Shown: positions 1-51,158 of the stretch, one piece after another | Layout: each line of letters opens with the position of its first letter | Position numbering within the stretch: position 1 is the first letter of the stretch | NCBI GenBank assembly: GCA_031763025.1 | Contig: JASSKH010000017.1 | Coordinates: forward strand, 8,844,254-8,908,253 | DNA: 64,000 nucleotides | Direction: 5' to 3' | Origin: Macrocystis pyrifera | Lineage: Eukaryota; Sar; Phaeophyceae; Laminariales; Laminariaceae | Translations under genes and position numbers: made by a program | The notes under the pieces: model-generated | Seen by the model: only the letters and a program-made list of their open reading frames with translations | What the model was told of the DNA's origin: nothing | The model's database searches: none

Positions 1-516
1 AATAGAGGGTTTTTAGTCAATCGTTGTAGTAGGCGATATGTCTACTAAATAGTACGGGTATGTCTGCTGGTTTCCGCCAACAACAGACCACGATTAAAGG
101 CACTCGTGCCACTGCTGTGCAAGCACAAAAAATAACAATGACATACCTTGTGCGTGGTTACCGATTATGTTGGGATGGGAAAGCAAGCCTCGCGATCGGG
201 TGTGCCTGACATTTTGTTTGCCTCAACTTTTTCGACAATCGTGTTGATGAAATATGGAGCCCCGTGGCCAAGATGATATGGCCGGCTGTTGAAAAAAAGG
301 GCAGAAGCTTAAACTTCGATGTTGACGCTCTGATCTATTTTTCTTTTAAGAAACTGCGGACGCCGAAATGTTTAGATTTGTGGCGCTACGGCGAGTTCGG
401 CTGTCGAGGTGTGCTGTCACGGCGGTCGCAATGCAACAATGCAGCATACCTATTGATAGTACTTCGGGGGCGCACGACAAAAAAGAAGAACGACATTACA
501 GTCCTAAGCAGGTCAT

Positions 517-840
517 TTTTCTTTTTTTAATCATCACTTTTACTTTCCAGCCTGACTCGTAGGAGGTTTTACCCTCAGCGATTTTCTGGACAAGCCGTGG
601 TCTCAGGCGTTGTCCCTTCTCCCCCCCGGTACGTGCCTTTATTTTTGTCCCGCATAGGGTTCAACATTCCCATTGCTCGTCGATTTTCATCGAATGTAGC
701 TAACTCACGCTCTCGCGCTTTCCGCTAATCATTTTTTTATGCAAGAAAAAGTCCCTACGAGCATGCCCTCGGTGAGACTCGAACCCACGAAAGTGATCTT
801 GATAGGCACGCGGACCACCTACCGAGCCACCGGGGTCGCA
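517..840 (-). mobile_element. SINE-like insertion with tRNA-like head
   Basis: On the minus strand the segment starts near 840 with a tRNA-like head. It has an A-box-like TGGCTCGGTAGG (828-817), a B box GGTTCGAGTCT (785-775) and a T stem GTGGG/CTCAC around the TTCGAGT loop. The acceptor stem pairs only partly and no clear anticodon stem forms, so it is not a functional tRNA. The other end is A-rich (534-517 on minus). The mirrored right-arm site (about 49,925-49,945, GGTCATGATAATG read on minus) lacks the segment. The target duplication is very short or degraded. Confidence 0.5.
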
Positions 841-1327
841 TGATAATGAAAAACAAACCTGTGGGGTCGAGGATTTCTGAAAAAAAAATAAAACGGGAAT
901 GTGTTTTTTTTTTTTTTCTGTTTCTAGTTTTGTCTTACCTGTGGGTTTCATTTACACGTATATATGCCCCCCCCTCCCTTGTCTGAGTCTCGAAAGTGGG
1001 TAGTGAGGTGTCGGATTTTGTTTTTTAGTTCACCCCCGAGCACCTACTGCAGTACAAGTATGCCTGAGAATACGGCATACGATAATAGAGACCGTTGAGT
1101 GCGCACGCGGTTTTCGGGGCTCGTTGTCTCGATAACGGTAAAGGGTGCTACAATACAGTCCAACACAATGCTTTAGGGGTAAAGGCTCTCTCTCGGCCAG
1201 ATCTTTCCGAAAACGCCTTGTTGCCGTTCGGTGCTGTATTGGCAACCTTTCCTGGTTCTGGAAAAACCGAGCGCCCGAAAGACCATCCCACCTCTGTGCG
1301 AACTCAACTCCCTTTACTATACGGTAC

Positions 1328-2511
1328 TGCGCATCCGCCGTGGGTGGTGTCCAAGGGAATGGGGGGGAGGGGGGGCAAGAGGAGGAGTGGCAGAAAACCC
1401 GACCAAAGGAATGTGGGGGGGGGGGGGGGGGGTGTACTCGATAAGAGAGATGTACTCGATCTCATGCATGGCCGTAGTCGTATGACCATAGACCCTCGCA
1501 TCCCTACAATGCCGGGACGGAGCATGTCGGGTTTTCACCGACCAGGCAGACATTGCTTGCACCAAGCGCGAAGCGCCGTGAGGTGTCCGGCGAGTCGCAT
1601 GAAGGGTGAGCTGCATCCTACTAAGAAGAATGTGGGGGGGGGGGGGGGGGCAGGAGGAGTAGAAGGGAAACTGCGGTGGGCGAAAGTAGGAAGGACACGG
1701 CAGACAGGGTAGCAAGGCACCTGGCCGACTAGGAAGTAGAACATGCCTATGCTACTCGTGCCGCCAACTGGTGCAGCTGGTTCGAACGTGGTATTCATTT
1801 GTCTTCTTTTTTTCCTCTGTGATTTTCCATTTTATTTATTTCTCTTCCTTTCTTCTGTTGATAAGCCTTATTACAGGAATCGTGTGGCGTGGGTGGATGA
1901 CGAGCCAGCTTTGCTTGTTTCTTATTGTCTGACGCCGAGGGGCGGGGCATAGTTGACGAACGCAGGACGGAGACGGCAGACAGGGTAGCAAGGTACAAGG
2001 CGGACTAGCAGGGAGAACCTGGCTATGCTACTCGGACCACAAACTGCTGCCGCTTTGTGCTTTGGTTTGCCTGTTATTTTCCCTTGGTTCTTAGTCTTAC
2101 TATGTTTACAAGTAGTTGTGTTTACTTCTTTTTTTTTCCAGCTCGTGATTTTCAAGTGTCTGCCACATCCCCTGCGGAGGGGGCACGACAGTTTGTTTCT
2201 TCTATTTTTTTTTTCTCTGTTCTTTCTCTTTCGAGTTGTCTTCTTTGTTTTCGTTTTTAGTGTGTTTTCTTTCGTTTCTCTACTTCATAGAATGTGTATG
2301 TCGTGCCTGTCGTATCCAGTATGATGACATGGCACTGCATTGTCCACTGTGCTTACTGCATACGTGGCAACGTAGGATCTCTGTGGCGTAGTTTTGTGAC
2401 CACAGAACTTGTATCTCTCCAGGATTGAAGAATCGGCACGGACACTGGTTGTGCTGGATGTCGACGGGTAGAAAGGACGGTTTAATGTGAAGCTCACACA
2501 CACTACTACGT
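1328..2511 (+). repeat. Dispersed repeat R1, copy A
   Basis: It matches 7,346-9,057 in the same orientation. Shared blocks are CATCCGCCGT..GGTGGTGTCC at the start, GGGTGGATGACGAGCC in the middle, and the segment around CGATCCAGTACGATGACATGGCA / GTATCCAGTATGATGACATGGCA near the end. It contains two internal direct repeats (about 1,696-1,780 and 1,970-2,055, starting ACGGCAGACAGGGTAGCAAGG). The mirrored right-arm sequence (about 49,430-49,450) runs straight across the insertion point, so it arrived after the arms formed. No coding capacity is seen. A poly-G-associated element is nested at 1,433-1,628. Confidence 0.7.
1433..1628 (-). mobile_element. Poly-C-tract retroelement, copy 1 (truncated)
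   Basis: In the orientation used here the constant end is ...GGCCATGCATGAGATCGAGTACA, followed by a C tract (G tract 1,415-1,432 on plus). The other end is cut at CTACTAAGAA. Both sides carry the same target sequence GAATGTGGGGG (1,409 onward and 1,629 onward), a clear target-site duplication including the G tract. R1 copy B shows the site without the element. Confidence 0.75.
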
Positions 2512-5500
2512 ACAGTAGTAGTGGCAGTACGGGTGCCTGCGACGATACGGGGAGTAAGTTTCATCAAAGCTGTTTCTGGCTGACGGGGCTTCTCGGTTGA
2601 GGAACCACAGTACCCGCTATTGATAATAACATCGTTTGTTCGTACAGTACTTTTAGTATTAGACTTGCAATAGCTACGCTATGGGATTGCTTATCGGTTA
2701 AAGAGTACCTGGTACAACTTTTTTTGACAAAGCAGTTTTTGGGTGGATTCCTAGTAGAATGGAGCTCCTCAAATCAAGTAGGAGGAGCCCCTATACGAAG
2801 AGCTTGCGCAGGCTATATATCCATCTAAATATATCATACCCCTACCGCAGCACGCGTCTATACTAGAATCAAGTTGCTTCTCCATCGAGGCAGACTCAAG
2901 CTGAAGGTGGCGTGACCACAGAAAACATAAACACATCAGTCCCGCTCGACGTCATTTTCCTCTGCTTGGTATTATATCGGCGACTGGGATTAGACTCATT
3001 CATCAACCAAGCTTCAAGTCTCATAGAAACAAGTTTTACGTACGTACGTACTCGAGATCAACATGTACGTAGGTACTTATCGATATTGAGGCATTCAAGA
3101 CTGATGAGTACCAGTATATTCGGCGAAAACCCGTCCCCTCACGTACCCCCCCTGCACGCCCAGTATCCATACACAATAATACAAACATAGTCCAATCAAA
3201 GCGGCAGACGACATGTACGGACACCTCCGCGGCATCATCGTCATAATCGTCATCTCTACTCGTACCACCACACGACGATCTGAGTCAAGATCAACAAACG
3301 CCCGGAGCAAGCAAGCAAAGAAGCTGAACGTCAACCGGGCAACCACATCAGGACGATAGGTGGAATTTCAAGCGCACCTCAATGTCGACTGATGCCCCCC
3401 CCCCCCCCTCCCCTCATGAAGCCTCGGCAAGCGTTTGATCGGAAACTCCGTCCCCTCTCCTCCTTCCCAAACCTCTGCAGCTCCGAATTGATCGGAACGG
3501 AATCGCTCGAAACCGAATCGTTCAAAACCGAGTCGCTCGACTGGTCCGTCCGCGTGGAAATAGGGGCCGCCAATCTCTGACAAGGCAAAGCAGTACACTA
3601 CGCCACATCTCCGTCCCTTCCTCCCTCCCTCCCTTCATCTCTGCACTCCACCAACACTTTCGCGCCAGCAACGCTTAAAAACAGCAAACCACGCGAAACG
3701 GCCACTGCAACGTATTATTGGTCAGCGTACTCACTCTAACGCCGATACGGTGAGCGCGCGGGAAGGGGGGGGATCAGGAGCGCAGTGGGGGGTTGTATCG
3801 GAGGGGGGGTGATAGGAAAGGGCGTTTCCTAGAAACGTTAGAGAACCCCCCCCCCCCTACTCGGAATCCGGAAACGCCTTCGATATGGCTTCATACCACT
3901 ACTGCCTGTTCGACGGGTCATATTTACTGTCCCCCAGATTGCCTTCCTCTCGGACGCATCCAATTAGCACTCCCCGCCGCACTTTCTAGTTTAGTTTTTT
4001 TCCCTCGGCCTCTATACTGCCTTCACCTCACGGCAACGTTCGTCCAATACATAGTACATGTACAGCACACCCCACCTCCCACCCCCCGTCCCCTTCGTGA
4101 TGCCCAAACTGAAACTGCTTGTCGTGGTTCTTCTATGGCGCCACTCTTACATCGTCTCTAGTTGCTACTGCTATATAGCAAGTGCCGGCAAACACGGGGG
4201 AAAATTGTTGGCTTTGGGCGACTGCGCCATCCACTCTCTGACATCGCCTGATCTCCGGCACCTTGATCATCTACCCGGTGCGTTATTGCCCACGTACTAT
4301 TAACGCTATCTTGGTCCAGGGAGCTGAAATGTCGAGGGCGCTTCGACAAGCCAAGCCTCTGCCCCCTGCATAGCACCACAGGGCCCTCAGTTACCCACGG
4401 GAGCAACAATCTGGTTCTGATGGGGGGGGGGGGGTGCATATTTCGCCCGTACTAGCAGCAAAGGCTCTCTGGTGTCGGTATGGTCGTGGTGCCTGCGTTG
4501 CCACCGGTGGCACGTGGGACGTGGGTTGGCAGATGTCACGTCAGTGCTAATACGGTACTCATGGGGGGTAGTCAACATATGCCAAGCCAAGAGGGGAAGT
4601 TTTAAACTGAAGAAACTAAAGTGTTCGTGTACGTGTACAGTAGTCACTTTGTTCGAGCATCGAACACTGCCGTGAAAACAACAACCGGGTTATCGTTGCT
4701 CGTTGTTTCAGTGAGATGTGGCGGTGTGTCTGTTGCGGGCGATCAACTGAAGCAACCTTCTTCAGCTACTTCAATTTACGTCGGCGACTGTCGTTAGAGT
4801 ATGCTTAGTTCTGACCACAAAGGCATGCCCCGAGGTACTCGTCGTCATCCTCAAAATGGGGACCACAGGGTACGCTCTGCTCCTTCCCGCTTCCATGTTC
4901 CAGATGAGACTCCATTGTACGTAAGCGAGAAGCAGCTACAGTTTAGGAAAGGGTGCCGCCCTCTATATGAACGGTTGTTGACGGACATCAACATGGTGCT
5001 AAACTTGGCGCTTAGCCGGCCTGTTGGTTAGGCATGACAGTCGACCACGGTCTTTAGCACTCTTAATGACGAAAAATCAATCGCCTAATAAGCTGGAAAC
5101 CGTCACTCTACAAACTTCCAGCACGTTGAAACAGAACCCGCTGCGCATAACGGAAATCAGCACCTGACCAACCTATGAACGGCCCCGTGTACCAGCTGAC
5201 CATCACATCATACCCCCCCCCCCCCCCCCCCCCCCCCCCGAAAATTGAAATAGCGGTAAGTACATAACATGCCTTAAAGGGATGCCAGCCATAGCTGACA
5301 GAGCTCTACGGGAGAACGTAACACAAGGGCGAGCTGGAGCAAGGTGGGATCGCGTAAGCAAGAAAGTGTGGGAGGATAGAAGTTAACCAAGAAGAGAAGC
5401 TGTCCATAGATAAGTTTGGGGGGCACAGGACAAAAGTAATAACAAGAAAAGAAGGAAGGAAAAGGCTAGCGCTAAGAATTACGGCGAAAGAGGATAAACA

Positions 5501-7130
5501 TTTAGAGATATTCGGGGGGTTAAGAGAAGGGTTAGGAATGAAAACGTATCTGCACGACCCAACGGACTTCGCGAAAAAGCTGAGTTTGCGATTTCGTGTA
5601 TGGGGCCTGGACCTGCCACAAAAAAGAAAAAGGTATACCAGTAGCCGGGAGAAGGTACTGTAGATGCACATATGTGCCCTTGTGGCAAAGCAATAGAGAG
5701 TGTCACTCACGTAGTGGGAGAGTTGTGAAATATACAAGGAGGAACAGGATGTGTTAGATATGAATAAAATGGAAGAAAGTGATATGGAGAAGTTTGGTAC
5801 ATTTAAGTAGTCCCGATAAAACGATCGCTATCCTGGGAGATAGATGGTGGCCACACGAGGCGAAACAGGAAGGGGAAAATAACAGCAAAAGCTCGATGTA
5901 CTATATGGACACAACACAATGAACGCCCAACTGTTGGAGGTATCGCTACTAGAAGTAGGAACAGTGCTCCGTCTCGAAGGGGATGCATGGTCCATAGTCT
6001 AATGACCAAGGCAAGCAACAAATTAGTACGCTCCCCTCCACGCCGATTAACTGCAAGACTGAGGCCGTTGTTAGCTTGAAAGAGACTCTACATAAGTGTT
6101 CCCGAGGTGGAGCACATGCTGCATACCTCATATGCACTTTTCTACCTGGTACACCATTGTCACCGTAAGCACACACAACGGCAAGGCCGAAAAGCAGTCG
6201 CAAACCCTCCCTTGCCTGAGAACTGTATAGCGCGGCCCACGGAATCAGTCCAGCAGAAGGCCTTGAAGTGGAATCGGAAACGCGTGGCAGCCTCCCTCGC
6301 TTCCGTCCTCAGCAAGGGGGTCCTGGGTCTTCATTCGTGCCAATCAGTCCAATCCAATCCAATCCACCGTAGTGGTCGTGGAGAATACCGTAGCGTGGGA
6401 GAAGGTCTGATGCTGGCGAAATCATCCTGCTACAGGGAACGACGAACAAAAGGAATACCATTAACAGCCACAAATTTAGGCAGGTGCCGTCATTTAGAAC
6501 AGCGAGCGACAACATGCTGGAGACATTAAAATTTCCGAGCCAAAATCCCTGCCTCGCTCCCGTACCTAGCAGTTTAGCATGGCGCCACGACACCGAACGA
6601 AGCCAAAATGTGGCCGAGCCTCCTGCCCAATAGTGGATGGCACACAACGCGCCGGCGCAGCCAACATCCGGCACGTGTGGAGCAAGCAAGGCTACTCCAG
6701 TTCATATCTGGTATATATATATATTACAAGGTTCCTCTTCGGGTTTGTGGTTGACTTGAAATACCCGGGGGGTGTCGCAAGCTGAAAAGGGAGGACACAA
6801 GAACAGACCAGGCGTTCGTCCCTCGTACCAGGTACTCACACGTCGCAACCGGGCAAGAACGAAAAACATGAAAAAGCTCTTGAAAGCTACGTAAAGACAA
6901 AGAAGTCCCCGGGCAAGCAACCGGGCGAACAGCACCGACCAGCCCAAACGAGTTGATAAGTGGTTAGAATAGGGTCTACATCGCCTTGGGTCTTGTCCTT
7001 TGTAGGCGGAGCAACGAGTTCACTGCCGCGGAGGCTTCAGGCTGAGGAGGGCCACCTCCACTGCCCCCCAAGTAATCTTCAACTAATTTGAAAGCCGCAT
7101 ATATACTTCAACCATGCCAGGAGTATGCAC

Positions 7131-9057
7131 AAAGACTTGGCATAGATGCATAGTCGAAGACCTTAGGGAGTTCCGAGCCATCGAAGGATCAACGGGACAC
7201 TTCCCCTTGGTGTTTGGAGTTGAGATCGCGCTGTGGTCTATTGCAGCAAAAAAGGCGGGGAAGTGGTACCGGGGGGTCCTCGAAGTAGCCGAATGGTTCA
7301 TGGTGAGATGGCACGAGGATGAGACACAGCTGAGTAGGCAGTGCCACGCATCCGCCGTCGGTGGTGTCCAAGGGAATGGGGGGAGGGGAGGCAACAGGAG
7401 TGGAAGGAAACCCGACCAAGGGAATGGGGGCAGGGGGGGCAACAGGACGAATAGAAGGGGAACCGGATGAGGGTAGGAATGAGACGGCAGACAAGGTAGC
7501 AAGGCACCAGGTCGACTAGTATGTGGCACATGTCTATGCTACTCGTGACGCCAACTGCTGCAGCTGGTTAAAACGTGATATTCCTTTGCTTTAGTTTTTG
7601 CTTTTGCGCTTTGATTCTCCGTGATTTTCTTATTGTTACTTTTTTTCTAGGGTTTTAGCCAAAAGGTATACCTGGCCACTTTTGGGCTAAAAGCAGTTAC
7701 CAGTACATACTAAAAACAAGTAAAAATCACACGTCAGGAGCCCTGCTATTGGCCAGACTGACATCGTACCTGATTTTGGCTCGAAAAGGCCAGGGTATAC
7801 CAGGATTTTCTACTCCGTCTAGCTTTCAACTGGTGTTGGCCAGTTTTGAACCAATCAGAGAGGCCATCGTACGTCCACTGTTTTTTCTCTGCGTACGCGT
7901 CTGCGGTCCCTCGGTTTGTATAAACTCTGTACACATACGTACGCATTTACGCACTACTTACTCTCTGTACTCGTACGTACGTATTTATGCATACATACGT
8001 ACGGTGATTTCACTTTTCTTATTTTTAGGAGTGTACGACAAAGATGTCAGGAGACAGCCTTTTCACCCCTTGACCGACAGCAACTTTGCCTCGACATGCC
8101 CCGGCTGACACCAAACTACAAGGCTTTAGTGTGGAACACTCGGCCCTACACCCTTGACAGCGCACGTTTTGCCTTGCTAGACATGTCTCTTGACATCTTT
8201 GGTGTACGATCTGCTTCAGTTGGTATGATGTATACTCTGTTGTTTTCTATGGCCTATACCCTAAAGAAAACAAAACAATTCAAGTTTTTGGAGGCCACAC
8301 CCTTGATGTTCAGGCACAATTTTTTTAATGGATTTTCATGAAAACACCGCTCGTGGCGAGTTTTTTTTACTTGGTTTTATTATTACTTGTTTTCGACCCA
8401 AAAGGATCAGATATACCTGATTTTGGCCACAGATTGTTTTTCTATATTTCTTCCTTCTTTTTTCCATGTGAAAAAAGTCCTGTTTCGTGGGTGGATGACG
8501 AGCCTGCTTTGTTTGTTTTGTACTGTCTGACGCCTCTTCTTCGGGGCTGGGGCATATCATGGTTGACGAAGGCAGAAAGGAAACGGCAGACAAGTTAGCA
8601 AGTTACCAGACCGACTAGTAGGCAGAACCTGTCTATGTTTCTCGTACCACAAACTGCTGCTGCTGCCTGGAGGGTCCTTTTTTTTTCTCCGGTTTGCCGG
8701 TTATTTCCCTTCGTTCTTAGTCTTACTCTGTATATATGTGGTGGGGTGTTGTTTATTTAGCTCGTTCTGTATTGTCTGCCAAATCTCCTACAGGGGGGCA
8801 CGACATTGTTTCCTTTTTGTATTTCGATTTGTTTCTTTGTTTCTTCCGTTTATATATTTCATAGAACATGTCGTTCCTGTCGATCCAGTACGATGACATG
8901 GCATTGCATTATCTACTCTGTTTACTGCATAACAATGTAGTATCTCTGTGGGGTAGCTTTGTGACCACATAACTTGTATCTCTCTAGGATAGAATCGGCA
9001 CGGATGTTGGATGTCGACGGGTAGAAAGAACGGTTTAGTGTAAATAACATACACACA
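7131..9057 (+). repeat. Dispersed repeat R1, copy B with extra 5' segment
   Basis: Second copy of R1 (7,346-9,057), with about 215 bases of additional unmatched sequence upstream and a 0.77-kb element inserted at 7,657-8,430. The right arm near 44,110 lacks the entire stretch. It preserves the uninterrupted form (GGAATGGGGGCAGG at 7,421-7,434) of the site occupied by a nested element in copy A. Confidence 0.68.
7657..8430. mobile_element. Terminal-inverted-repeat element nested in R1 copy B
   Basis: Copy A of R1 is continuous where copy B is interrupted here. The ends are imperfect inverted repeats of about 40 bases: GCCAAAAGGTATACCTGG...CTTTTGGGC at the left and its counterpart CCAAAATCAGGTATATCTG...CTTTTGGG on the opposite strand at the right. 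Related GGCCAG/GATTTTGGC subterminal blocks occur at 7,750-7,870. No transposase frame is present, so it looks non-autonomous. Confidence 0.6.
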
Positions 9058-11499
9058 GCATGCGTCGTGATGTCAATAACCCTTTCGCAACTGCGCCCTC
9101 CTTCCGGTGAAAAATACTTGGAATAAGAGTTGGGTATGTCATACAAACGTCTTACTGAGACGCTGCATTTCATGGAAATTTACTGATGCGTACGTACTAT
9201 CCTTCTAACGGTAGTCACAGGGAAAAGAGGAGTCATGGGCAAGTTGACACCAAACGTGTTACTACTACATAAACACGCTCAACCATTCATCGTGCTTGCT
9301 GTCTCCCGCTCCCCCCACCTCCACTTCCGGGATGACTGCGGTAGATTCAGCGATGAGAGCTTCGATGCCGTGGAGCATTACGATGCATTTCCTGCTCTCC
9401 AAAGGGGACGCCTGTGAATAGTCTCCCACACCAAGACCTACGCTGTCGCCGGCGGGCGCTTCACGGGCGTCGCTTTCATCTCCTCATACGTGAGAACGAA
9501 CGATGATTTTTTCCAGCAAAACAACCCACCACCATGTGCAATTATCCTGTGTCCTTTGTGGCTGTGGCGTGAGCATTCTTCCGACGAGTAGAGAGTAAGG
9601 GAAACATGATAGCAGAGAGAGGAGCAGGCGGAAGGTGTCACAACGTCGGTGCCGGCAGTATCGTCAGAACCGCCACCCCTCTCTGACATGCTGTAAAAAA
9701 ACCTTGCAAACCAGTCAATCGTTCGGATACAGGCCGGGGGTTGGAGATTAGTCTTTCCATCCTCACTTTTTTGTTTTACTCGTACGTTGCTTAGAGAACG
9801 CTATTTTGCCTCCCTATCCCCGCTGTAACTTTCAGATTTGTTTTAGAAGGTTAAAGTTTTAGAGTAGGGAATTTTGAGTCTGGCAAGAAGAGTTTCAATA
9901 ACATCCACCGCCAAAGGCCCCGGGGGATCGACTTTCCCTGTGGAATTCTATAGTGAGGGAGGTGGACGTTGTGGCCGTGTCCATGAGAGCTGTGTGGCTC
10001 GAGGTTGGTGGATAGCACGAGGAGACACTGAGAACGAAGAAGCAACATAAATCAGACCTTTTCTGAAAACGGCCTGAGGATACGGCTCTAGGTTGCACGG
10101 CCGCCACCAGCTACAACAGCTGGCGAAGGCCGCGAAACCGAGCACCATGCATGTGGTGCGTGAGAGGAGATTTACGTCGAATTCGACGGAGGCTGGGAGG
10201 AATAAGTTATCAAGATACTGTCTTGGTATACGGTGATATGGTGATGGTCATTGGGATTTGATCTGGGCAGAAATTCTGACTCTAAACAACTTGGTGCTGC
10301 CCAAGCACCGTTCGAGAGGCCAACAGCTCGTAGAGAGACAACTGTGGAGTCATGTTCTGGCTGATGCCCTTCTGCAACATATCAGGGATTCCTCGTAATC
10401 ACCTCGGCAGCAAATCGCGAGAGAAAGCGATTCTACTCGACCTCGCTCTGAATTGATCTGAAAAGTACTATTAATAGCTGTATTCCCAAAGACTATCTTG
10501 TCTTGTGTTGTGCCTGTTTCGCCTCGCGTGGGCGGGACTGCCACCGATAGCATATTCTTCTGGAAACCTATTGGTCGATTGTCGAATAGAACCGGAGGTG
10601 GTGGAACATCTCCAATGTAAAATACGCCTCCGATTTACAAAACTTCCCCTCTTCCGACCAACGGCCTTCAAATAACTGCTAACATTAGAGCAGAACACGT
10701 CGAACAGCCACTTGCTGCTGCTACTGCTGCTGTTGCTACGTTGTAGTTGGTATAGGTGCGCAGGGAGCGAGACTGGGTACTGCTGCTGCACTACAGACTG
10801 GATAAGACCGCACGGTACAGGCATTGCATACCTGCTGGGTACACTGCTGCGCAAGTTGAAGCAGTACGCACGTAGCGCAGGCAGTTCTGCACCAACAGGC
10901 AGGCAGTATCGTCTCACGGCAGTACGAGGTCAGTCGGTACATCCAGCATCCACCATTCACCAGCAGTGCCAGTACAAATCAGTCAAGCGTTGATCGAAAA
11001 AGGAGCACTATTAATAATATGCAGACCACTATTAATATTAATACTGCTGTCACTACTGTGCGGCGCAGTGCGGTACCAGGTACCAGGTAATCAGTCAATC
11101 GTTGATCAACTGGAAAAAAGCGGACCAGTTGGCAGATCACTACTGCTGCCGTGCGTCGGCTCTATTGATACTAATAGTAGAAGGTACGAGTGCTAGAGCG
11201 CAGAGAAATAGGAATGCCGTTGTGCTTGAGCTGCAGCCACGGAATAGACTGCGCTGGTGAGGCTACTTCTCTCAAGCGCAGGTGGTGTTACACATTCGTA
11301 CTGCTGTAGCGGTAGGCATTTTCTCAGTACAACACCTGTATCGCAGTGATACTCGTACAACATCTCAGTATCTGTCACCGGCGCAATATTGGAACACTTC
11401 CTCCGTCGTGTAGGCCCTGGAGGGAACCTGACGACGCTCCACCCCTTCAAAAAACGCCACCGCACCCACCCTGCGATGAACTGTCGTTGGCTGCAGGCT

Positions 11500-11720: not shown

Positions 11721-11930
11721 GTGCACTTTGCACTTTGGTACCTTGATGCGGCGCAAAAGCTGGAACGATCAGGTTCCACCGCGTTTTTAAAGCCTTTCTA
11801 TTGACTGTGCTTTCCATATACTGATTTTGATTGGGTAATGGCCTTTTTACGGCCCCTTTCCCCTATCACAGTAGTAACGTTTGTGCGTGAATATGGCAAC
11901 CCGCATGATTCAGAGCCTCTGATCAGTAGA

Positions 11931-39945: not shown

Positions 39946-40186
39946 AGCTTGCAGTCAACGGGCCACCGCAGCTTGAGCTTGCAGTCAACGGCAGTAGTTC
40001 CTCGCAGGGTGGATGCTGTGGTGGTTTGAGGAGGTGAAGAGTTGTGAGGTCCCCTCTAGGACCTACACGACGGAGGACACGCTCCTTTATTGCGCAGGTG
40101 ACATGTATTGTGATGTTGTATATTCGAGTACCACTGCGATATTCCTGAAAATATGCCTACATCTGGTATGAACACACCATGTGCCC

Positions 40187-40268
40187 TTTTAGGATTGCAG
40201 TCCCGTTTTGGGGACAAACTACTTAGAATTGGGGTGATTTTTCCCAAACGGGACTGCAGTCCTAAAAG
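40187..40268. mobile_element. 82-bp miniature inverted-repeat element
   Basis: The termini TTTTAGGATTGCAGTCCCG / CGGGACTGCAGTCCTAAAA form an almost perfect inverted repeat, continuing as TTTTGGG / CCCAAA. The mirrored left-arm sequence near 11,330 lacks it. Confidence 0.65.
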
Positions 40269-40420
40269 TGAAGTAGTCTCCCTGGCGGAAGTCTATTGCC
40301 TGTACCGTGCAGGTTTCCCTGTCGTAAAACGGTACGAGTGCTCTTTCTTTTGTGCTACAGCAGACTGTATCACTTGTACCTTCTACAGTACTATAATAAT
40401 AGAGCCGCGCAACAGTATCG

Positions 40421-40530
40421 ATATTACGGGGGACCGTAGTTAATAGGACCAAATATTGTCGGTAAAAAAGGTAAATATATAGGTTCTTGTGTGTACCATA
40501 GGTCCTATTTACTATGGTCCCCCGTAATAG
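40421..40530. mobile_element. Miniature inverted-repeat element, family M1
   Basis: The ends TATTACGGGGGACC / GGTCCCCCGTAATA are near-perfect inverted repeats around a 110-base body shared with the other M1 copies. It is absent from the mirrored left-arm site near 11,160. Confidence 0.78.
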
Positions 40531-40878
40531 TATTAATAGCTGCCTTCTTTTTTTTGCGCCTTTTCCAGTTGGTGCACGATTGACTGATTATACTGGCACT
40601 GCTGCTGGATGTTGGATGCCGGATGTACCGACTGACCTTACTTGTACCTGCTGTACTGCATGCCTTTGATGCAGAACTATCTGCGCTACTGTACCTACCT
40701 ACCAGGTATGGTTTTAACTTGCGCAGCAGTGTACCCAGTAGGTATATAATTCCTGTACCGTGCGGGCTCCCCCCGTCTGTAGTGCAGCAGCACTACCTAC
40801 CCCCTCTCGTTTCATGTACGCCTGTGCCTACACAGCAGTACCACAACAGCAGCATTTATCTATTTGAATTGTTATGCT

Positions 40879-40990
40879 CTATTACGGGGGGTCCATAGTT
40901 AACGGGACCAAATTTTGTTAGTAAAAATAGGCAAATATATAGGTTTTTGTGTACACCATAGGTCCTGTTAACTATGGACCCCCGTAATAG
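40879..40990. mobile_element. Miniature inverted-repeat element, family M1
   Basis: The ends CTATTACGGGGGGTCCATAG / CTATGGACCCCCGTAATAG form a perfect dyad. The body matches 40,421-40,530. Two M1 copies lie within 350 bases in the right arm. Confidence 0.78.
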
Positions 40991-41865
40991 TGTGCAGCGG
41001 TTATGAGTCGGTTGAGAGAAGTTTTTAAAACCAAGGCGTGTTCTATATATTGGGGAGTTCCTCCGATTCTAACTTGAAAATCGACCCATAGGTTGCCAGA
41101 AGATGATATTGATGACGGCCGCGCACACACGCGGCGAAACCTACACAACACAAGATAAGACAGTCTTTTAGACTTGCAGGAGTTTTCAGGCCAGTTCAGA
41201 ATCGAGGCCGCTTAGAATCGCAGTTTCTCACGGTTTGCTACGGAGGTGATTACCCGAACCCCCTGATATGTTGCAGCAAGACACCAGCCATAAAATGGCT
41301 CCATGGTTCCTCTCAAGGAGCTGTCGTTCTCTCGAACGGTGCTTGGGCAGAGCACCAAGTTGTTCGGAGTTAGAATTCCTGGCCAGATCAAATCCCAACG
41401 ACCATCACCACACGCCAAGACAGCGCGTCATCACTCGCGATGATAGGGATTTGATAATGTATGCCTGCCGACATCGACCGGTTTTGACGTAGCGCTCCTC
41501 TCACACACCGCGTGCGTGGTGCTCGATTTCAAGGCCTTCGCCAGCTGTTGTAGCTTGTGGGCAGTCGGGCAGCCCAGATGATCCGTGACCTCAGATCGTT
41601 GTCAGAACAGGTATGTTTTATGTTGCGTGTTCATTCTCAGTTTGTCCTTCACTTATTCTCCGACCTGGAACCTTACCGCTCTCGTAGGCACGGCCATGGC
41701 GTCCATCTCCTTCACTGCAAATCCAGTAGGGCAGGTTGAGCCCGTGGAGCCTTTGGTGGTGGTGGGTTTCCTTGAAAATCTTATTACCAAGCCCAAAATG
41801 ACTCTGTCTATAACGTTAACATTCTCAAAATAACCTTAAGAGTTCCATCGGAGATGGGGGGGGGG

Positions 41866-43349
41866 TGCACTCATTATCATGCATGGCTGTAGTCGTATGA
41901 CCATAGACCCTCGCATTAGAGCCTGGTATCACCTAAAAATCGGGGGGGGTATATGATATCTATATATACCCCCCTAAACAACATGACTAAGTCATAGAAG
42001 TTGATATTTCTTAGTCATGTCCATATCACGGGCATTTTCTGATATATCGCTATGATATGTGATATATGCAGGGTATATGATGATACCATGTCATGTATCG
42101 TGTGATATATCATATATATAGTGTAATATCGTATATATAACGTTATATATCATGTACCTTGTATATTGTGATATGTCGTTTTATATCTGCCCTATATTTA
42201 TCGTGATTTCGTGTGCTATTATCACCTCCCATCACCTATATCTGTACGTCACCGCCGTGTCACATCGGTACTTGCTCGTGGTTGGGGCCTGTGCCACACT
42301 GATGGTAAGGCACTGGCTTGGTACTTGGCGATCTGTGCCGGCTACGTACTACAAAGCACACCAAAAGCATGAATGATGATACAGCAACCCTTTCTCCGCG
42401 AGGATATATTGCATGTAGATGTGTGGCGGCATTTGACGATGTCGAAGGCGACTGCTGTAGCTGTGGCTTGCCTGTGGCCGCAGGCGATGGCGCGTTCGAC
42501 TCGCTCATCGCGGATCAAACCCGCACGACAGGAAGACAGTAGCGGGCACCGGCCCTTGTACGTCCCCTCTTGTGTGTGCGTCACGCTTCGTACTCGTATA
42601 CTAGTACATACGCACCAGGTATAATATACTGCACGTATATTCCGCCCAAAATGTACGCCCGAAAGACGCAAGATATATCGTCAAGACAGCAAGTGGTCAT
42701 ATTATGACACATATCGGATAGCTATATCACGTATTTCACCTCATATAGGCCGATATATCATCTTATATCACCTTATATAGGCCGATATATCCCTTCATAG
42801 CGGACGTATATATCATATACCAAATATCATATCATCTTTTAGTCACATCGTGCTGAAAGCCCTTATATATAGCGATGTATTACGATATGATATATATCGC
42901 ACGTTCCGGCGAAAAAAAAACATGACTAAGTACTATGGAAATATCATATCGTATAGGGGGTATATATAGGGTAGCCCTATACTGATACCAGGCTCTAGGC
43001 CCTACAATGCCCGGACGGAGCACCTCGACCAGGCAGACATTGCTTGCACCAAGCGCGAAGCGCCGTGAGGTGTTGGGCGAGTCGCATGAAGGATGAGCTG
43101 CATCCTACTAAGAACCGATTTAGAGGCGGATTTTCTTGCATATGGATGACAGCATCAATGAATTGATTCAATTTCTGGTGTGGCCACTTCCAGAGACAGC
43201 AATGGGTTTACTATGCAACTGCCTCGCGGGTGCCTCACCATATACACACTACGTGATACGATCATCCCCCTTGTGCGGATTAAAGGTTCTTCACGCGTAC
43301 AAAAATTATCTAACTCGACGGCCAGCCGTGGTAACCGCAAAAACAAAAT
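41866..43349 (-). mobile_element. Poly-C-tract retroelement, copy 3, interrupted
   Basis: Element parts at 41,866-41,916 and 43,000-43,349 are split by a 1.08-kb AT-rich insertion. The constant end adjoins the G tract 41,856-41,865. The distal end reaches the block CTAACTCGACGGCCAGCCGTGG, also present in copy 6, and stops at a G-rich stretch (43,350-43,360). The left arm lacks it near 9,800-9,820, where CCTCCCTATCCCC is the likely empty target. Confidence 0.7.
41917..42998. mobile_element. AT-rich TIR element nested in copy 3
   Basis: It has terminal inverted repeats AGAGCCTGGTATCA / TGATACCAGGCTCT. The interior is dominated by GATATATC-type dyads, with CATGACTAAGT blocks near both ends (41,982 and 42,921) and GGGGGTATA blocks beside them. 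It interrupts the retroelement between CTCGCAT and CCCTACAATGC, which are adjacent in the other copies. No coding frame and no clear target duplication were found. Confidence 0.65.
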
Positions 43350-44960
43350 GGGAGGAGGGGTTACACGCTATACGAGTAATACCAAAAAATCGGGGACGAA
43401 AAGCCTATTCTCCGACCCCCGACCTTCCTCCGTACGATTGACTGGTTCGGAAGGTTGTTTGCAGCATGGCAGGGAGGTACTGGTGGCTCTGACGATACTG
43501 CCGGCAACGAGGTTGTGACACCTTCTGCACCCTTGTCCTCTCCCTGCAATCATGTTTCCCTTGGCGCTCTACTGGTAGGAGGACGCCACAGCCACAAAGG
43601 ACACTGGATGATTACACGTCGTGATGGGCTATTCCGCTTGAAAACGCTCTCGTTCGTTAGTACGTATATACGAGCAGACGAAAGCGACGTCAGTAAAAGT
43701 GCCCGCCGGGGACAGCTGGAATCTTGCTGTTGGAGACTAGCCGAAGGCTCTCTTCATCGAGAGGAAATGCCTCCTAGTCTTCCACAGTGTCGAAACTCAC
43801 AGCGCTTAATCTACGACTGTCGTCGCAGGGGCGGAGGTGGAGGGAACTGGAGACAGCAACCATGGTGGGCGATTCTGTGTGTACATGTACGTAGTATCAT
43901 AGTGAGGTTAGTGTCAACTTCCCCATGACTTTTCTTCTCCCCGTAACTGCGGTTAAAAGGATTGTACGTACGCATCGACAAATTTCCATGCGACGCACCG
44001 CCTCAGCAACACGATTGTAAAATATAACCAACTCTTATTCCAAGTATTTTGTTACCGGAAGGAGGGTGCAGAGGTTAGCGGCCACGCCGTATCTCATGCA
44101 TACTATTGGTGTGGTTGAGATGTATACCTGGTAAGCAGTTTTCGAAAGCGGCTTCAGAGTACTTGGCTTCAGCGGAGGCGTCCCTCCTCCGCCAGAAGCC
44201 TCCGCGGCAGTGAACTTGGCGCTGCTCCCATTTTATCAAGGAGGAGCCAAGGCGATGCAGACATAAAAAAATAAATGGGAACTGGGCTGACCTTGTTTGC
44301 TTCACACGTGCCGGGTGTTGGCTGCGCCGGTGCGCTGTGTGCAATCCACGTTCGACAGAAAGAGACTCGGTCACCTTTTGGCTTCGTTGGATGTTGTGAC
44401 TCCATCTTAAAACTGCTAGGTACGGGAGCGAGGCACGGATTTTGCTTGATTTTTTTCACCTCTCCGGCATGTTGTCGCTGTTCTACGTGATGGCGCCTAC
44501 CTAATGTTGTGGATGTTAATGGCACTCCCTGTGTTCGTTGCTCCCTTTAGCAGGATTCTTTCCCCGGCATCAGATCTTCTTCCACACTATGATGTTCTTC
44601 ACGGCTGCGACGTACGGTGGATTGGATTGGATAGATTGGAACAAATAAATACCCAGGACCCCCTTGTTGCGGGAGGAAGCGAGAGAGCCTGCCACGCGTT
44701 TCCGATCCCACCTCAAGGCCGGCTGCTGGACTGATTCCGTGGGCCGGGCTACCGAATACGGTTTTCAGGCAAGGAAGGGTTCTGCAGCTGCTTTTAGGCG
44801 TTGTCGTTGTTTTGTTTTCGGTCCTAATGATGTAGAAAAATATACTTTCAGCATGTGCCCCACCTCGAGAACGATACTCCACTAGGTAGAACCTATTTCA
44901 GGCCATCAATGACCCCGGTCTTGCAGGTATTGGCCGGGGCCGGGGGGGGGGGGGGGGGGG

Positions 44961-45183
44961 TACTCATTATCATGCATGGCCGTATGACCATCGACCCTCG
45001 CATCCCTACAATGCCGGGACGGAGCGCGTCGGGTTTCCACCGACCGGGCAGACATTTCTTGCACCAAGCGCGAAGCGCCGTGAGGTGTTGAGCGAGGGTG
45101 AGCTGCATCCTACTAAGAACCACTTTAAAGGCGGATTTTCTTGCATATGGATGACAGTATCGATGAATTGATTTCGTTTCTGG
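44961..45183 (-). mobile_element. Poly-C-tract retroelement, copy 4
   Basis: It is bounded by G tracts 44,942-44,960 and 45,186-45,198, with matching GGCCGGGGG on both sides. The mirrored left-arm site is an uninterrupted C tract at 5,213-5,239, flanked by the same unique sequence (ATCACATCATA on one side, TGAAATAG on the other). This is an empty target site. Confidence 0.75.
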
Positions 45184-45867
45184 CCGGGGGGGGGGGGGTG
45201 ATGATATGATCAGCTGGTACGCAGCATTCTGGTTTGTTCGGGTGCTGAATACCGGTATGCGTATCGCAGGTTCTGTTGTGAGCCACGTGTTGGCACTATC
45301 AAGAGTGAGGAAGTCCAGCGTTATCAGGCTGTTGGTAATTTCGTACTAGAGCGCCAAACACCGTGGTCGGCTGTCATCGCTGGCTAATAGGCCGGCTACG
45401 CGTCAAGTTTAGCACCATGTTGATGACGTCCGTCAATAACTGCTCTCAATGAAGGCGGATTGTGGCACCCTCTCCTGTTGATAGGACTGCAAATATGTGC
45501 TTCTCGCTGGGATAGCATGAGTTCGTCTGGTAGTCCCTATTTTGAGGAAGACGATTGGCCTCCTCGAGTTGTGCCTTTATTTTTTCGGAAGAAGCATGCC
45601 GTGTCGTACCATTAGACGGGTGACAGCTCTATCACACGGGTAATAAGATAGCTTATCCCCTTGGACGAATTTTATCGCCGAGTTTCTCGAGAAGGAGGAG
45701 GGCACAAACGCCGAGCGATGTACGTGTCTGCGGAAAGATCTCGACGAGATGGTCCCAACGCCGCCATCTGCGTCGTGTGCGCCCCCCCCTTGGTTTCGGA
45801 GACTTCATCTCGGAAATTCGTCCAAGGAAGTGTGTTGTATCGCGTGTTACTGGGTACACGGCCGCCG

Positions 45868-47311
45868 ACGGCCGCCGACGCAAAGTGAGCTGAAGTGATT
45901 AGTGAACTAACTGAATAAGGTTGTTTCAGCTTCAGCCGATCGCCCGCGATATGTACACAAAGACAAAATAAAATACTCTCGTCGGCAGTTTTGTACACCA
46001 GAAACACTAACCCCGTAGACTAGATTCGCACCTCGGACAAATCACGATCTAGATCATCTAAATCCTCATCTGCCGTTATGAAATGTTGTGCATGATCTGC
46101 GCCGTACAGGTCCAACGCGAGTATCATGTCCTACATCATGAAGAATATACGGACCCTACCCGGCAACATGAGCTAGATAGGTGGACCATACAGATCACGA
46201 ATGTATCTGCCCGAAAAGATCTGGAAATTGAAGTAGGAATAAATACTCTGTCCGAGGGGTTCTCTGTCTTGACTCTGCTGATGTTCTTGATCGATGCGTC
46301 GTCGTAGCAAAAGCAGCGGCAGCGGCAGCAGCAGTCGCAGCAGCAGCAGCAGCCGCAGCAGTGGCAGTGGCAGCAGTAGTAATACACGAATCCAGCGTAG
46401 ACAGGCACCGCGGTTGATCGGGGCGCATGAGTAGCTGCAGCGTGAAAATACTGCTTTTTGCCACAAAGAGAACCCGTATTCCTCACCAGCGGCGAACGCA
46501 GAATCAAGAAGATGAGACGATCCCAGAGGCTTGAAGAAGCAAACAAGGCAAAGGTTGTACCTGAATAGCTTGTCGGCTACAGTCGCTGCCCCCCCCCCTC
46601 AAGCTTTGATAGGAACTAAAGCTCGATCACGGCCGGCAAGTCTCAAGCTGCTGTAGGACGGAGTATGTGGATATGTAGGGACATAGTGGTATGTGACGAG
46701 CTATTACAACCCCCCTTTTAGCTTGTGCTGAACTACATCGCTCGAAATTCTCCACTGGAAGCTGACTGGTCAACTTCTCCGTTGAGTGTATGTGCTTGCC
46801 GCATGCTGTAATCCGATCCTCGCGTGAAGCAACTACACCTGACTAAAATAATTAAACTAAGCATAAAACATCGGCCGAAAGGAGGACGAACACACACAGC
46901 AGCTACTGTAGGAGCAACAGCAAGGAGGGTGTAGACAAGTTGCGTACAACTTGTATATTCCTTTGTACATAGGTCCCATCAAGTACGTACCCACACGTGG
47001 GAAGTTCTATTATAGGGCCATTGACAGACCTATACCCCAAAGGCAATTTCTAGGCGATGGGTCAGACCTAGGACATTTTTTCTTCGCTACCCTGCAGAGG
47101 CGAAACAATGTTTCGCTTGACAGATGCTCAAACCGCTGATTTGGTGATCGTGAGATAGACCACCAAAGCCTGCTGGGACGCTTGACCTACCTTCTTCGGG
47201 AGGCCGATTCGAAGTGTTTCGATATATTTTCAACAAGGCACATCGACAGCAGCCGACGCAAGGTCAATCAAGTAACCCTCAAGTGTTTTTCAGCCGATCG
47301 CCCGCAACAGA
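45868..47311. repeat. Right-arm stretch bounded by direct repeats
   Basis: 45,868-45,950 and 47,248-47,306 share GCCGACGCAA, AGTAAC/AGTGAAC and TTCAGCCGATCGCCCGC. The left arm has one counterpart (about 4,735-4,800). The enclosed sequence of about 1.3 kb has no left-arm match that I can see. It includes a GCA/GCC trinucleotide run (46,308-46,380) but no convincing gene. Confidence 0.5.
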
Positions 47312-48224
47312 AACACCGCCAGATCTCCCTTCTAGATCTCGCTTGAACGGCGAGCAACGATAACCCCCGTTTGTCGTTCTTTACAGCAGTGTTCGACGCT
47401 CGAAACAAGTGCCTGGTACGTATATACCGGTACACGGTTAGGTTTGTTCAGTTAGAAACTTCCTCTCTCTTTGTAAAAGTTGAATCCTCGTCATGAGTAC
47501 TTGTACTAGGGCTGACGTAACATCTGCCGCTCGCGTCCCGCGCGCCACCGATGGAAACGCAGGCATCACGACCATACGAGCACCAGGGAAGATTTACGGC
47601 TAGTTCTAGAAGAAGAAGTGTCCCCATCAGAACCGTCTTTGCGCTGTCCGTGGGTACTGGAGATGCCCTGTGGTGCCATGCAGGGTTGAAGGGCTTGGCT
47701 TCAAGCTCTCCCAACCTTTCAGTTCCCCGGACCGATAGTATTAGTGTATATATATATGTGTGTGTGTGTAAAGAAGATTAAGAAGGTGCCGGAGATCAGG
47801 CGACGTCAGAGAGCAGATAGCGCAGTCGCTCAAAGGCACCAAAACTTTCCCTGTGTTTGCCAGCACTTGATGTATAGCGGTAGCAACTATTAATGAAGAC
47901 GAAGTAAGAGTGGCGCCACAAAAGGACCACGACAAGCAGTTTCAATTCGGGCACCACGAGGGGGGGGGGGGGGGAGGTGGTGTGTACTGTATATGTACTG
48001 TGTGCTGGACGAACGTTGCCGTGAGGTGAATGCAGTAAAGAGGCCGAGGGAGAAAAACGAAACTAGAAAGTGTGGGGGGCAGCGCTAATTGGATGCATCC
48101 GAGGGTAAGATGACCTGGGGGACAGTGAATATTACCCATCAAAGCAAGCAGTGGTGGTACGGCCCGGCATCGAAGGCGTCTCCAGATTCCGAGGGGGGGG
48201 GGGGGGGGGGGGGGGGGGGTGGGG

Positions 48225-48338
48225 TGTACTCATTGCCATGCACGGCCGTAGTCGTATGACCATAGACCCTCGCATCCCTAAAATGCCGGGACGGAGCACG
48301 TCCGGTTTTCACCGACCAGGCAGAAAGTGCTTGCACCA
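48225..48338 (-). mobile_element. Poly-C-tract retroelement, copy 5
   Basis: This short copy is cut at TTGCACCA and bounded by G tracts 48,193-48,224 and 48,339-48,346. The mirrored left-arm sequence (3,846-3,857, GAGAA-C12-TACTCGGAATCCGG) is an intact C tract with the same flanks, again an empty site. Confidence 0.75.
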
Positions 48339-48427
48339 GGGGGGGGAGAGAGGGAAGTGTTCTCTAAGGTTTCCAGGAAGCGCCCTTTTATAGTATCCGT
48401 ACCCTCCATTTCCCTCCCCTCCGAAAC

Positions 48428-48428
<1 letters not shown>

Positions 48429-48479
<51 letters not shown>
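48429..48479. repeat. 51-base poly-C tract
   Basis: This uninterrupted C run is the longest G/C homopolymer in the window. Similar tracts occur at 5,213-5,239, 23,662-23,679, 38,042-38,078 and 48,193-48,224. Such tracts host or flank the poly-C-tract retroelement copies. Confidence 0.9.
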
Positions 48480-48480
<1 letters not shown>

Positions 48481-51158
48481 ACTTCGCTCCTGTCCCACAC
48501 ACCCCAGCACGCGCTCACCGCATCGGCGTTAGGGTGAGCTCGATGAACACTGATACCTTGCGGCGGCCTGTTCGCGCGGTTTGCTGTTTTTAAGCGTTGC
48601 TGGTGCAAATGGTTCGGCGGGGGGCAAAGATGGAGCGAGGGAGGGAGGGAGGGAGGGAGTTGCGGCGCGGTGTATTACTTTGCCTCGTCGGAGATTTGCG
48701 GCCCCTCTGCCCGCACGGACGAAGCAGTCGACCGATCGGGTTTCGAGCGATTCGGTTTTTGAGCGATTCGGTTTCGATCAATTCGGAGCTGCAGAGGTTT
48801 GGGGAGGAGAGGGACGGAGTTTCCGATCAAACGCGTGGCGAGGCTTGAGGGGGGAGGGGGGGGGGGATCAGTCGACATTGAGGATTGAGGTGCGATTGAA
48901 GTTTCACCTATCGTCCTGACGTGGTTTCCCGCTTGGTGTTCAGCTTTTGCTTGCTTGCCCCGGGCGTTTCTTGATTTTGACTCAGGTCGTCGTTTGGTGT
49001 AGGAGTAGAGATGGCGATTATGACGATGATGCCGTAGAGGTGATCGTATCGTATGCCGCTTTGATTGGATAATGTTGGTATTTTTGTGTGTGGATACTGG
49101 GCGCGGGGGTGTGTGTGGGGGGAGGGGTTTTTTTCACGGAATATACTGGTACTCATTTGTCTTCAATGCTTAAATATTGATAAATTCCTACGTACATGCT
49201 GATCTCGAGTACGGACGACAGGCTCAAAACATGGTTGATGAATAAGTCTAATCCTAATCGCCGATATTATAAGCGGAGGAGAATGACGTCGAGCGGGGCT
49301 GATGTGTTTATGTTTCCTGTGGTCACGCCACCTTCTGTAGTTCCTCAACCGAGAAGCCGCATCAGCCCGAAACAGCTTGGATAAAAGTTGCTCCCCGTAC
49401 CGTCGCACGCGCCCGTACTGCCACTATATACTACTGCACGTTCAGTAGTAGTGCCGTATAGTAGGCGTCGAGTCCGCACAGGGGTGCGATAGTTTTTCAG
49501 GCGCTCGGTTTTTCCAGAACCAAGGAAGGTTGCCAGTACTGCACCGAACAGCAACAAGGTGTTTTCGAAACCATCTGGTCGAGACAGAGCCCTTTTTTTT
49601 CCGAAAATATTGTATTCGACTGTATTGTAGCACCCTTTACCGTTATCGAGACAGCGAGCCCTGAAAACCGGCCGCACCCCGGTCTCGATAATGGTATACC
49701 GTGCTATCAGGCATACTTGTACTGCACTAGGTGCTCGGGGGTGAACTCAAAAACAAAATTCGACACCCCACTGTCCACTTACGAGACTCAGACAAGGGAG
49801 GGGGTGCATGCACAGATATACTGAAACCCACAAGTAAAACAAAACTAGGAACAAAAACAATGCACTTCCGTATGCTTTTTTTTCCGGGAATCCTCGACCC
49901 CACAGGTTTTTTTTTTCATTATCATGACCTTTTTAGGAGCGTAGTGTCGTTTTTTTCTTTTTGGTCGTGCGCCCCTGAAGTTTTATCAATAGGTATGCTG
50001 CATTGTTGCATTACGACCGCCGTGACAGCACACCCCGACAGCCGAACTCGCCGCAGCGCAACAACTCAAAACATTTCGGCGTCTTAAAAAAAGGAAATAG
50101 ATCAGAGCGTTAACAGCGAAGTTTAAGCTTCTGCCATTTTTTTCAACGGCCAGCCATATCATCTTGACCACGGGGCTCCATATTTCATCAACACGATTGT
50201 CGAAAAAGTTGAGGCAAACAAAACGTCAGGCACATCCGCTCGCGAGGCTTGCTTTCCCATCCCAACATAGTCGGTAACCACGCACAAGGTATGTCGTTGT
50301 TATTTTTGGTGCTTGCACAGCAGTGGCACGAGTACCTTTAATCGTGGTCTGTTGTTGGCGGAAACCAGCAGACATACCCGTACTATTTAGTAGACATATC
50401 GCCTACTACAACGATAGACTAAAAACCCTCTATTGTAGAGAGGCTAAAGAAAACCTGGTGCATAAAATCGCCTGGCATCTGCCGTGCGCCTGACATCTGC
50501 CGTGTACAAGAATTCGCCTGGCATCTACCATACAAACCCCGTGCCCCCCTCTCTTCCGTCGTCGTCGCTTCAGCCCTAGACTACAAGAACCTTCTACAGT
50601 TCCAGGCGTGCTACGGAGAGGTGAAATGGTGCCTGCATTTCCTGAGGCTTCTCCCTTAAGGCTTTAAGGCGTTATATGTATTCCTCACCCAGTAACCGGC
50701 TTTTCATAAAAAATTATAAGCTACGCCCAACACAAAACCCCGTGGGATACTGCTGTAAAGTTCGCGTCGGATCCAACGATAAAAGGTGCCGATAGCTCTT
50801 GACTCGAGGATTCCCGTCAACCAGAAAGGCTTTGACTCAAAAGTGTGAGCCCCCGCGTAGAACGCCTCCGGCCGGTGGTTTCCATAACTTACCGTCAATA
50901 CTATCAGTACTATTGAATGTAGTGCTGTATGTTTGGTGCCGTCTGGAAGGCCTCCAGCCACCACTACTCTTCGCATAAGTGCTGCTATTGATACTATGCA
51001 CTGGCATACACAGCGCTCTACATGGTAGCAGAGTTTTTTTGGAGCGAATAACACGCCAATAGTCTGACCCAGCGTTCTGGTGGTGGTTCTACTTCCAACT
51101 GAACGGGCCCAGAATTTTTACTGTACTGCTGTACCGTGTTGACAGTCCGTACCGCTGG

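What the first reader, a model, noticed from the sequence alone, without database searches (positions are those of the whole stretch)
1..50434. Giant ancient inverted duplication, at least 22-27 kb per arm
Nearly the whole first 50 kb is one imperfect palindrome with a spacer of about 1 kb. The arms are diverged and carry independent insertions, so it has persisted without homogenisation by gene conversion. That is unlike the near-identical palindromes of sex chromosomes. It contains one gene per arm and continues past the window on the left.
Basis: seen in the sequence. Interest (0 to 1): 0.9.

Follow-up and report, generated by a model that had tools for sequence, protein, structure and literature searches.

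The report
Kelp gene cluster of inverted duplications
The large DNA palindrome seen here is real, but it is one pair in a cluster of at least four old, mixed-orientation copies (one partial) of a two-gene block in what looks like the giant kelp genome, and the copies have exchanged sequence since they formed.

Summary
The palindrome is real. Arm A (27493 down to 1) pairs in order with arm B (28419 to 50434) around a 925-bp spacer: 17 blocks, 14,462 ungapped positions, 74.7% identity; six same-size controls gave 1-4 blocks. The host assembly matches giant kelp, Macrocystis pyrifera, a haploid gametophyte, so joined alleles are unlikely. With 100 kb of flank per side, the arms reach -14.4 kb and 64.6 kb and belong to a cluster A<- B-> C-> D<- of a ~35-42 kb unit, D partial. 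A, B and C carry a coiled-coil-like gene, an unrelated second gene and two conserved hairpins. Gene 1 of B groups with one database protein, A and C with another, so the A/B split probably predates a species split. 'Without homogenisation' fails: A follows C inside ~3.8 kb and B outside it (dLL 295 on mutually consistent sites; 200 permutations at most 7), and a 1.9-kb A-B patch is 95.8% identical against a tail mean of 85.9%. Verdict: a mixed-orientation segmental duplication cluster with exchange, a known kind. The hairpin pair, shared with a separate inverted array on contig C130, is the most novel lead.

The parts
1..27493 (-). Unit A (arm A), head at 27493, tail continuing left of the window to about -14.4 kb
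27494..28418 (.). Spacer of the head-to-head palindrome, 925 bp
28419..64000 (+). Unit B (arm B), head at 28419, tail to about 64.6 kb; partner of A inside the window up to 50434. Right of the window, in extrapolated window coordinates: unit C 66814-101625 (+) and partial unit D 101918 to about 114396 (-), with two further short colinear blocks (342 and 122 columns, perhaps dispersed repeats) up to 125.7 kb
21539..22732 (-). Gene 1, copy A, last exon (398-aa stop-to-stop frame, coiled-coil-like, basic C-terminus)
31872..32969 (+). Gene 1, copy B, last exon (366-aa stop-to-stop frame)
25263..26156 (-). Probable upstream exon of gene 1, copy A (homologous to 29896-30591 and to C 68077-69030)
29896..30591 (+). 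Probable upstream exon of gene 1, copy B
57618..58592 (-). Gene 2, copy B (325-aa frame); homologous frames in A (two overlapping, -7356..-6454 and -6550..-4871), C (96611-98302, 564 aa) and D (105217-106680, 488 aa)
19687..20003 (-). Paired conserved hairpins, unit A (cores at 19725 and 19946)
34551..34869 (+). Paired conserved hairpins, unit B (cores at 34589 and 34812)
3717..3869 (.). Switch point in arm A: inner side follows C, outer side follows B
48429..48479 (+). Poly-C tract of 51 bases in arm B, next to the counterpart of the switch point
1..282 (.). In-window part of the high-identity A-B patch (A 282 to -1672)
50153..52093 (.). B side of the same patch (1,937 columns, 95.8% identity)

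Best explanation
A mixed-orientation cluster of segmental duplications carrying a narrowly distributed gene family. An ancestral ~35-42 kb unit (gene 1, paired-hairpin element, gene 2, the two genes convergent) was duplicated in inverted orientation, leaving gene 1 copies A and B head to head so that they point outward from the centre of the palindrome. Copies C (same orientation as B) and D (tail-to-tail with C, partial) belong to the same cluster. SHOWN: the four-copy layout and orientations in this assembly; open gene 1 frames in A, B and C with dN/dS below 1; mosaic ancestry with one sharp switch; a high-identity A-B patch. SUPPORTED, if P0001 and P0002 come from other species: the A/B split of gene 1 is older than a species split, and A and C separated later. 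INFERRED: that inverted copies arose by template switching or fold-back repair; that the mosaic arose by long gene conversion, break-induced replication or a crossover between B and C; that the poly-C tract helped start or end it; that the gene products are used by the alga. The inverted layout needs no function of its own: it is what mixed-orientation duplication leaves, and recombination between copies reshuffles it.
For: Three full-length copies of a 4.1-kb head segment in the 537-Mb assembly, all within 57 kb on C197. Four-copy layout with block lists. Gene 1 frames of 398, 366 and 397 codons; dN/dS 0.60 (A-B), 0.43 (A-C), 0.60 (B-C). Tree: {B, P0001} split from the rest at 100, (A,C) 98, (A,C,P0002) 100; of 334 four-way columns, 41 support these pairings, 5 A with B, 2 the crossed pairing. 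Ancestry switch: all columns, A 3761, dLL 625, inner 809 of 2487 informative sites AB|C, outer 1858 of 2262; mutually consistent columns only, A 3869, dLL 295, against a maximum of 7 in 200 permutations of those columns. Patch A 282..-1672 95.8% identical, score 99.6 against at most 22.8 in 500 block permutations; A-C identity in windows of that stretch is 42-79%.
Against: No reads were available to confirm junctions; the layout rests on one assembly. P0001 and P0002 come from unnamed organisms. Exons are open frames, not transcript-backed; dN/dS was not tested for significance; the codon-position test flagged no window even in gene 1. Gene 2 is 564 codons in C but 325 in B and split into two overlapping frames in A, so its soundness there is not shown. 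The switch-point permutation ignores linkage between sites, and the patch permutation keeps it only within 25-column blocks. The window with 42% A-C identity has 0 of 250 mutually consistent columns, so it says 'not alignable' rather than a measured distance. The tail search did not report C or D, which exist at 61-68% identity in most blocks, so further diverged copies elsewhere are not excluded.
Confidence: 0.82

Rival explanations
1. A single, simple ancient inverted duplication whose arms have only drifted apart.
For: The in-window arms alone look like this: 74.7% identity, colinear, private insertions.
Against: Third and fourth copies outside the window; ancestry switch and high-identity patch.
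Confidence: 0.05
2. Assembly artefact: allelic or paralogous contigs joined head to head, or a fold-back read.
For: One assembly only; artificial palindromes are a known error of amplified long reads (PMC6218980, listing and abstract start).
Against: Source described as a haploid gametophyte with about 100x PacBio (passages); no N in 264 kb; a fold-back artefact would give near-identical arms, not 74.7%; gene 1 types A and B each have a separate relative in the database.
Confidence: 0.05
3. A variant of the best explanation: the mosaic reflects a reciprocal crossover between B and C rather than one-way conversion of A's tail.
For: If B and C swapped tails, A would be the unrecombined copy; p-distances head A-C 0.170, tail A-B 0.141 (0.161 beyond -2 kb), head A-B 0.272, tail A-C 0.327 are roughly paired as this predicts.
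Against: B and C lie in direct orientation now, where a crossover deletes or duplicates rather than swaps; an earlier order would be needed.
Confidence: 0.3
4. Inner-outer identity differences are only selective constraint.
For: A conserved island at 19.4-20.9 kb shows that constraint varies.
Against: The switch is in which copy is closest, not just in level; in A -1095..-1348 A-B is 95% while A-C is 68%, 136 of 250 columns mutually consistent.
Confidence: 0.04

Closest known systems
Mammalian sex-chromosome palindromes
   Same: Large gene-bearing inverted repeats with arm-to-arm exchange (PMC6790999, passages seen).
   Different: Those arms show high identity maintained by continuing conversion; here arms are 74.7% identical with a patch of exchange, and the locus has further copies. 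Whether C197 is the sex chromosome was not tested.
Mixed-orientation segmental duplication or clustered gene family under birth-and-death evolution (name recalled, from no call)
   Same: Several large copies in both orientations, mosaic ancestry, gene 1 kept as open frames in A, B and C.
   Different: No difference of kind seen; how common such clusters are in this genome was not measured.
Inverted duplications made by fold-back or template-switch repair (PMC3907307, PMC10622511: listing and abstract start only)
   Same: Short spacer between inverted arms at A|B (925 bp) and C|D (~0.3 kb).
   Different: The junctions here are too diverged to show formation signatures; mechanism inferred only.

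Membership tests
Mixed-orientation segmental duplication cluster | Several large homologous copies at one locus, in both orientations | tested here: met
   A<-, B->, C->, D<- (partial) within about 130 kb
Mixed-orientation segmental duplication cluster | Homology extends beyond genes | tested here: met
   Blocks cover DNA well outside the gene frames along the unit
Mixed-orientation segmental duplication cluster | Recombination between copies | tested here: met
   Ancestry switch and high-identity patch; direction and mechanism not resolved
Sex-chromosome-type palindrome | Near-identical arms kept by arm-to-arm conversion over their length | tested here: not met
   74.7% identity in the window; one ~1.9-kb patch near 96%
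Sex-chromosome-type palindrome | Location in a sex-determining region | not tested
   No sex-linked marker was searched for
Known Pfam gene family (gene 1, gene 2) | Match above the curated cut-off | tested here: not met
   10 window frames, among them gene 1 A and B and gene 2 B, gave no family at its cut-off; C and D copies not scanned
Known Rfam RNA family (paired hairpins) | Match to a curated covariance model | tested here: not met
   0 matches at gathering score in the window and 0 at E<=0.1 in L001 and L004
microRNA precursor (paired hairpins) | Small-RNA reads from both arms with 2-nt offset (criterion as in PMC4513859) | not testable with these tools
   No small-RNA data

The most novel reading that the evidence does not exclude
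The unit is kept and amplified around a new structured RNA gene. Units A, B and C each carry two hairpins about 220 bases apart; five fetched loci of a separate array on contig C130 also carry two each, about 240 bases apart, and their 3-kb flanks share little else with the 264-kb region around the window. Between the two families the stem changes in a compensated way (6 of 24 predicted pairs) while the apical loop stays nearly the same. The C130 array is itself inverted: five matches on one strand at 2.25-2.38 Mb and four on the other at 1.82-1.97 Mb. Two inverted arrays would then have grown around one RNA element.
Probability: 0.2. Interest if true: 0.65.

Novelty: new member of a known kind. 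Interest (0 to 1): 0.36.

Why it matters
It gives an internally controlled record of how large inverted copies diverge and exchange sequence in a brown alga, far from the mammals whose palindromes are the ones cited here. It also shows that a palindrome read from one window can be a slice of a longer mosaic cluster, so arm identity alone does not date it. The paired-hairpin element gives a concrete candidate for a new structured RNA in kelp.

Tried and rejected
Haplotype misjoin: made unlikely by the haploid source (passages). Codon periodicity to find coding blocks: no window flagged, gene 1 included, so uninformative. Target-site duplications at nine arm-specific insertions: longest shared words 4-7 bases, three of nine reaching 7; 200 of 2,000 random pairs reached 7 or more, so not decisive. 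Pfam on two of six frames of the right flank (50435-63999, minus strand): 0 families; the other four frames and most of the arms were not scanned. Relatives of gene 1 in viral contigs and genome contigs: 246 and 595 pattern matches, none confirmed. Hairpin 17-mer in viral contigs: 14 stretches, none folding into the long stem by eye, read as chance. Gene 1 and gene 2 as relatives: no. Telomere fusion at the centre: the tandem-repeat scan lists no telomere-like array at 27.5-28.4 kb. Print status: one paper search was answered on this subject (15 of 120 listed, none of those titles on this locus); the giant kelp paper has 0 uses of 'inverted' and 'tandem duplic' in its main text. Five further searches failed, so nothing is claimed about what is not in print.
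Full report
OBSERVATION. The inverted structure is present at the stated coordinates. A sensitive alignment of the reverse complement of the first 28 kb against the rest, chained, gives 17 colinear blocks: A 27493->1 against B 28419->50434 (two of the 17 are weak on their own). Over 14,462 ungapped positions identity is 74.7% and K2P 0.315. The spacer is 925 bp (27494-28418). In a same-size control the real arms gave 15 blocks and 15,619 columns; six other comparisons gave 1 to 4 blocks and at most 1,583 columns.

HOST. The window lies at C197:8844254-8908253 of an assembly of 537,376,219 bases in 223 contigs. The giant kelp paper (PMC10498591, passages seen) gives 537 Mb, 223 contigs, 50.37% GC, PacBio plus Hi-C, haploid female gametophyte. 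A haploid source makes two alleles joined by mistake unlikely. The joined 264-kb stretch holds no N.

THE WIDER STRUCTURE. With 100 kb added on each side the arms continue to about -14.4 kb (A) and 64.6 kb (B). A direct match, -16545..-15179 to 64706..66090 (76%), suggests they reach a little further with a local inversion. To the right lies a third copy, C (66.8-101.6 kb), in the same orientation as B. Next is a partial fourth copy, D, from 101.9 kb, tail-to-tail with C across about 0.3 kb. The order is A<- B-> C-> D<-. A 4.1-kb head segment has three full-length matches in the assembly, all here (the tool calls such counts lower bounds). A tail segment found only B and A (40 of 4,024 candidates scored), although C and D exist at 61-68% identity in most blocks, so copies as diverged as that could be missed elsewhere.

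CONTENTS. Gene 1: last exons of 398 (A), 366 (B) and 397 (C) codons, with a probable upstream exon in each. dN/dS is 0.60 (A-B), 0.43 (A-C) and 0.60 (B-C), with no significance test. A-B dS falls from 0.735 in the first 80 aligned codons to 0.175 in the third 80, which may mark exchange inside the gene. No Pfam family reaches its cut-off in A or B. 'Coiled-coil-like' is read from the charged, heptad-like sequence and a below-cut-off match, not from a dedicated predictor. Gene 2: frames in all four copies, 564 codons in C, 488 in D, 325 in B and two overlapping frames in A, so soundness in A and B is not shown; dN/dS 0.61 for C-D. It is not related to gene 1. In each full unit the two genes face each other. 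Gene 1 copies A and B point outward from the palindrome centre.

AGE. Four relatives of gene 1 passed E 0.001 (only the 7,995 and 7,994 candidates sharing most words were scored). The unrooted tree separates {B, P0001} from the rest and joins (A,C) with P0002. At 334 four-way columns, 41 sites support these pairings, 5 A with B, and 2 the crossed pairing. If P0001 and P0002 come from other species, the A/B split predates a species split, while A and C separated later. Their organisms are not named. One search found no further full-length copy, which argues against their being copies in this assembly; the protein search of the genome did not complete.

EXCHANGE. Three-way columns (17,638, of which 12,306 mutually consistent) show A mostly closer to C from 23.9 kb down to about 3.9 kb, apart from the conserved island at 20.8-19.5 kb where the three are about level or A is nearer B, and closer to B from about 3.7 kb outward to -12.3 kb. 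With all columns one switch at A 3761 (3783-3717 within 3 log units) gains 625 log units. With consistent columns only it lies at 3869 and gains 295, against at most 7 in 200 permutations of those columns. The counterpart in B is next to a 51-base poly-C tract at 48429-48479. Further out, A 282..-1672 and B 50153..52093 are 95.8% identical over 1,937 columns, against 85.9% for the tail as a whole. A-C identity in windows of that stretch is 42-79% (the 42% window has no consistent columns). p-distances: head A-B 0.272, A-C 0.170, B-C 0.290; tail A-B 0.141, A-C 0.327, B-C 0.299, C-D 0.248, A-D 0.316. One-way conversion or break-induced replication of A's tail from B, and a crossover between B and C, both fit.

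HAIRPINS. Within the island where A, B and C are 80-92% alike, each unit has two hairpins about 220 bases apart. Contig C130 carries nine short matches. The five loci fetched there are 96-99% alike over 3 kb, and each has two hairpins about 240 bases apart. Outside the hairpins these 3-kb loci share with the 264-kb region only stray matches of 30-49 bases in some loci (its table was cut to 40 rows). Across 12 aligned hairpins 6 of 24 predicted pairs show compensated change. Against: the consensus fold is weak (-8.7 kcal/mol, covariation term -1.08), 16 of the 24 pairs are broken or gapped in at least one sequence, and the 12 rows are two families with close repeats, so events are fewer than cells. 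No Rfam family matches. The 17-base core in 14 viral stretches lacks the long stem, a useful control. Ectocarpus microRNAs are described as rarely clustered (PMC4513859, passages), which neither supports nor excludes a microRNA reading.

VERDICT. Real, larger than reported, and of a known kind: a mixed-orientation segmental duplication cluster with exchange between copies. The claim that it persisted without homogenisation is not supported.

Noticed in passing
window 19687-20003 (-), 34551-34869 (+); L019:9480-9798; L004-L008 (C130): Paired hairpins with some compensated stem changes and a nearly unchanged apical loop, shared between the C197 units and an otherwise dissimilar, inverted array on C130 whose five fetched 3-kb loci are 96-99% alike.
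   Followed up: partly
window 55992-56779: A ~788-bp element present in B and not in A, 98-99% identical to 38 other places reported in the assembly (40 of 4,024 first-look candidates scored): a young, abundant mobile element.
   Followed up: partly
window 5213-5239, 38042-38077, 48193-48224, 48429-48479: Poly-C or poly-G tracts of 27-51 bases, some beside a dispersed repeat; one lies next to the ancestry switch point.
   Followed up: partly
window 16529-17101; also about -30.5k, -15.2k, 149.2k, 158.7k: Dispersed repeat of about 500-600 bases, about 80-96% alike among five places in the 264-kb region.
   Followed up: no
window 23867-24925 and 30919-30988: Pentamer tandem array (CACTG-like) of about 1 kb between the two gene 1 exons of A, but 70 bp at the counterpart in B; C also has a long one (matches at 69151-69813).
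   Followed up: no
window 39395-39428: Short telomere-like array, AGGGTT x 5.7, the only one listed in the window.
   Followed up: no
left flank, window coordinates -99578..-80489 (L009-L010): A separate direct duplication about 5 kb long, 91% identical, copies 14 kb apart.
   Followed up: no
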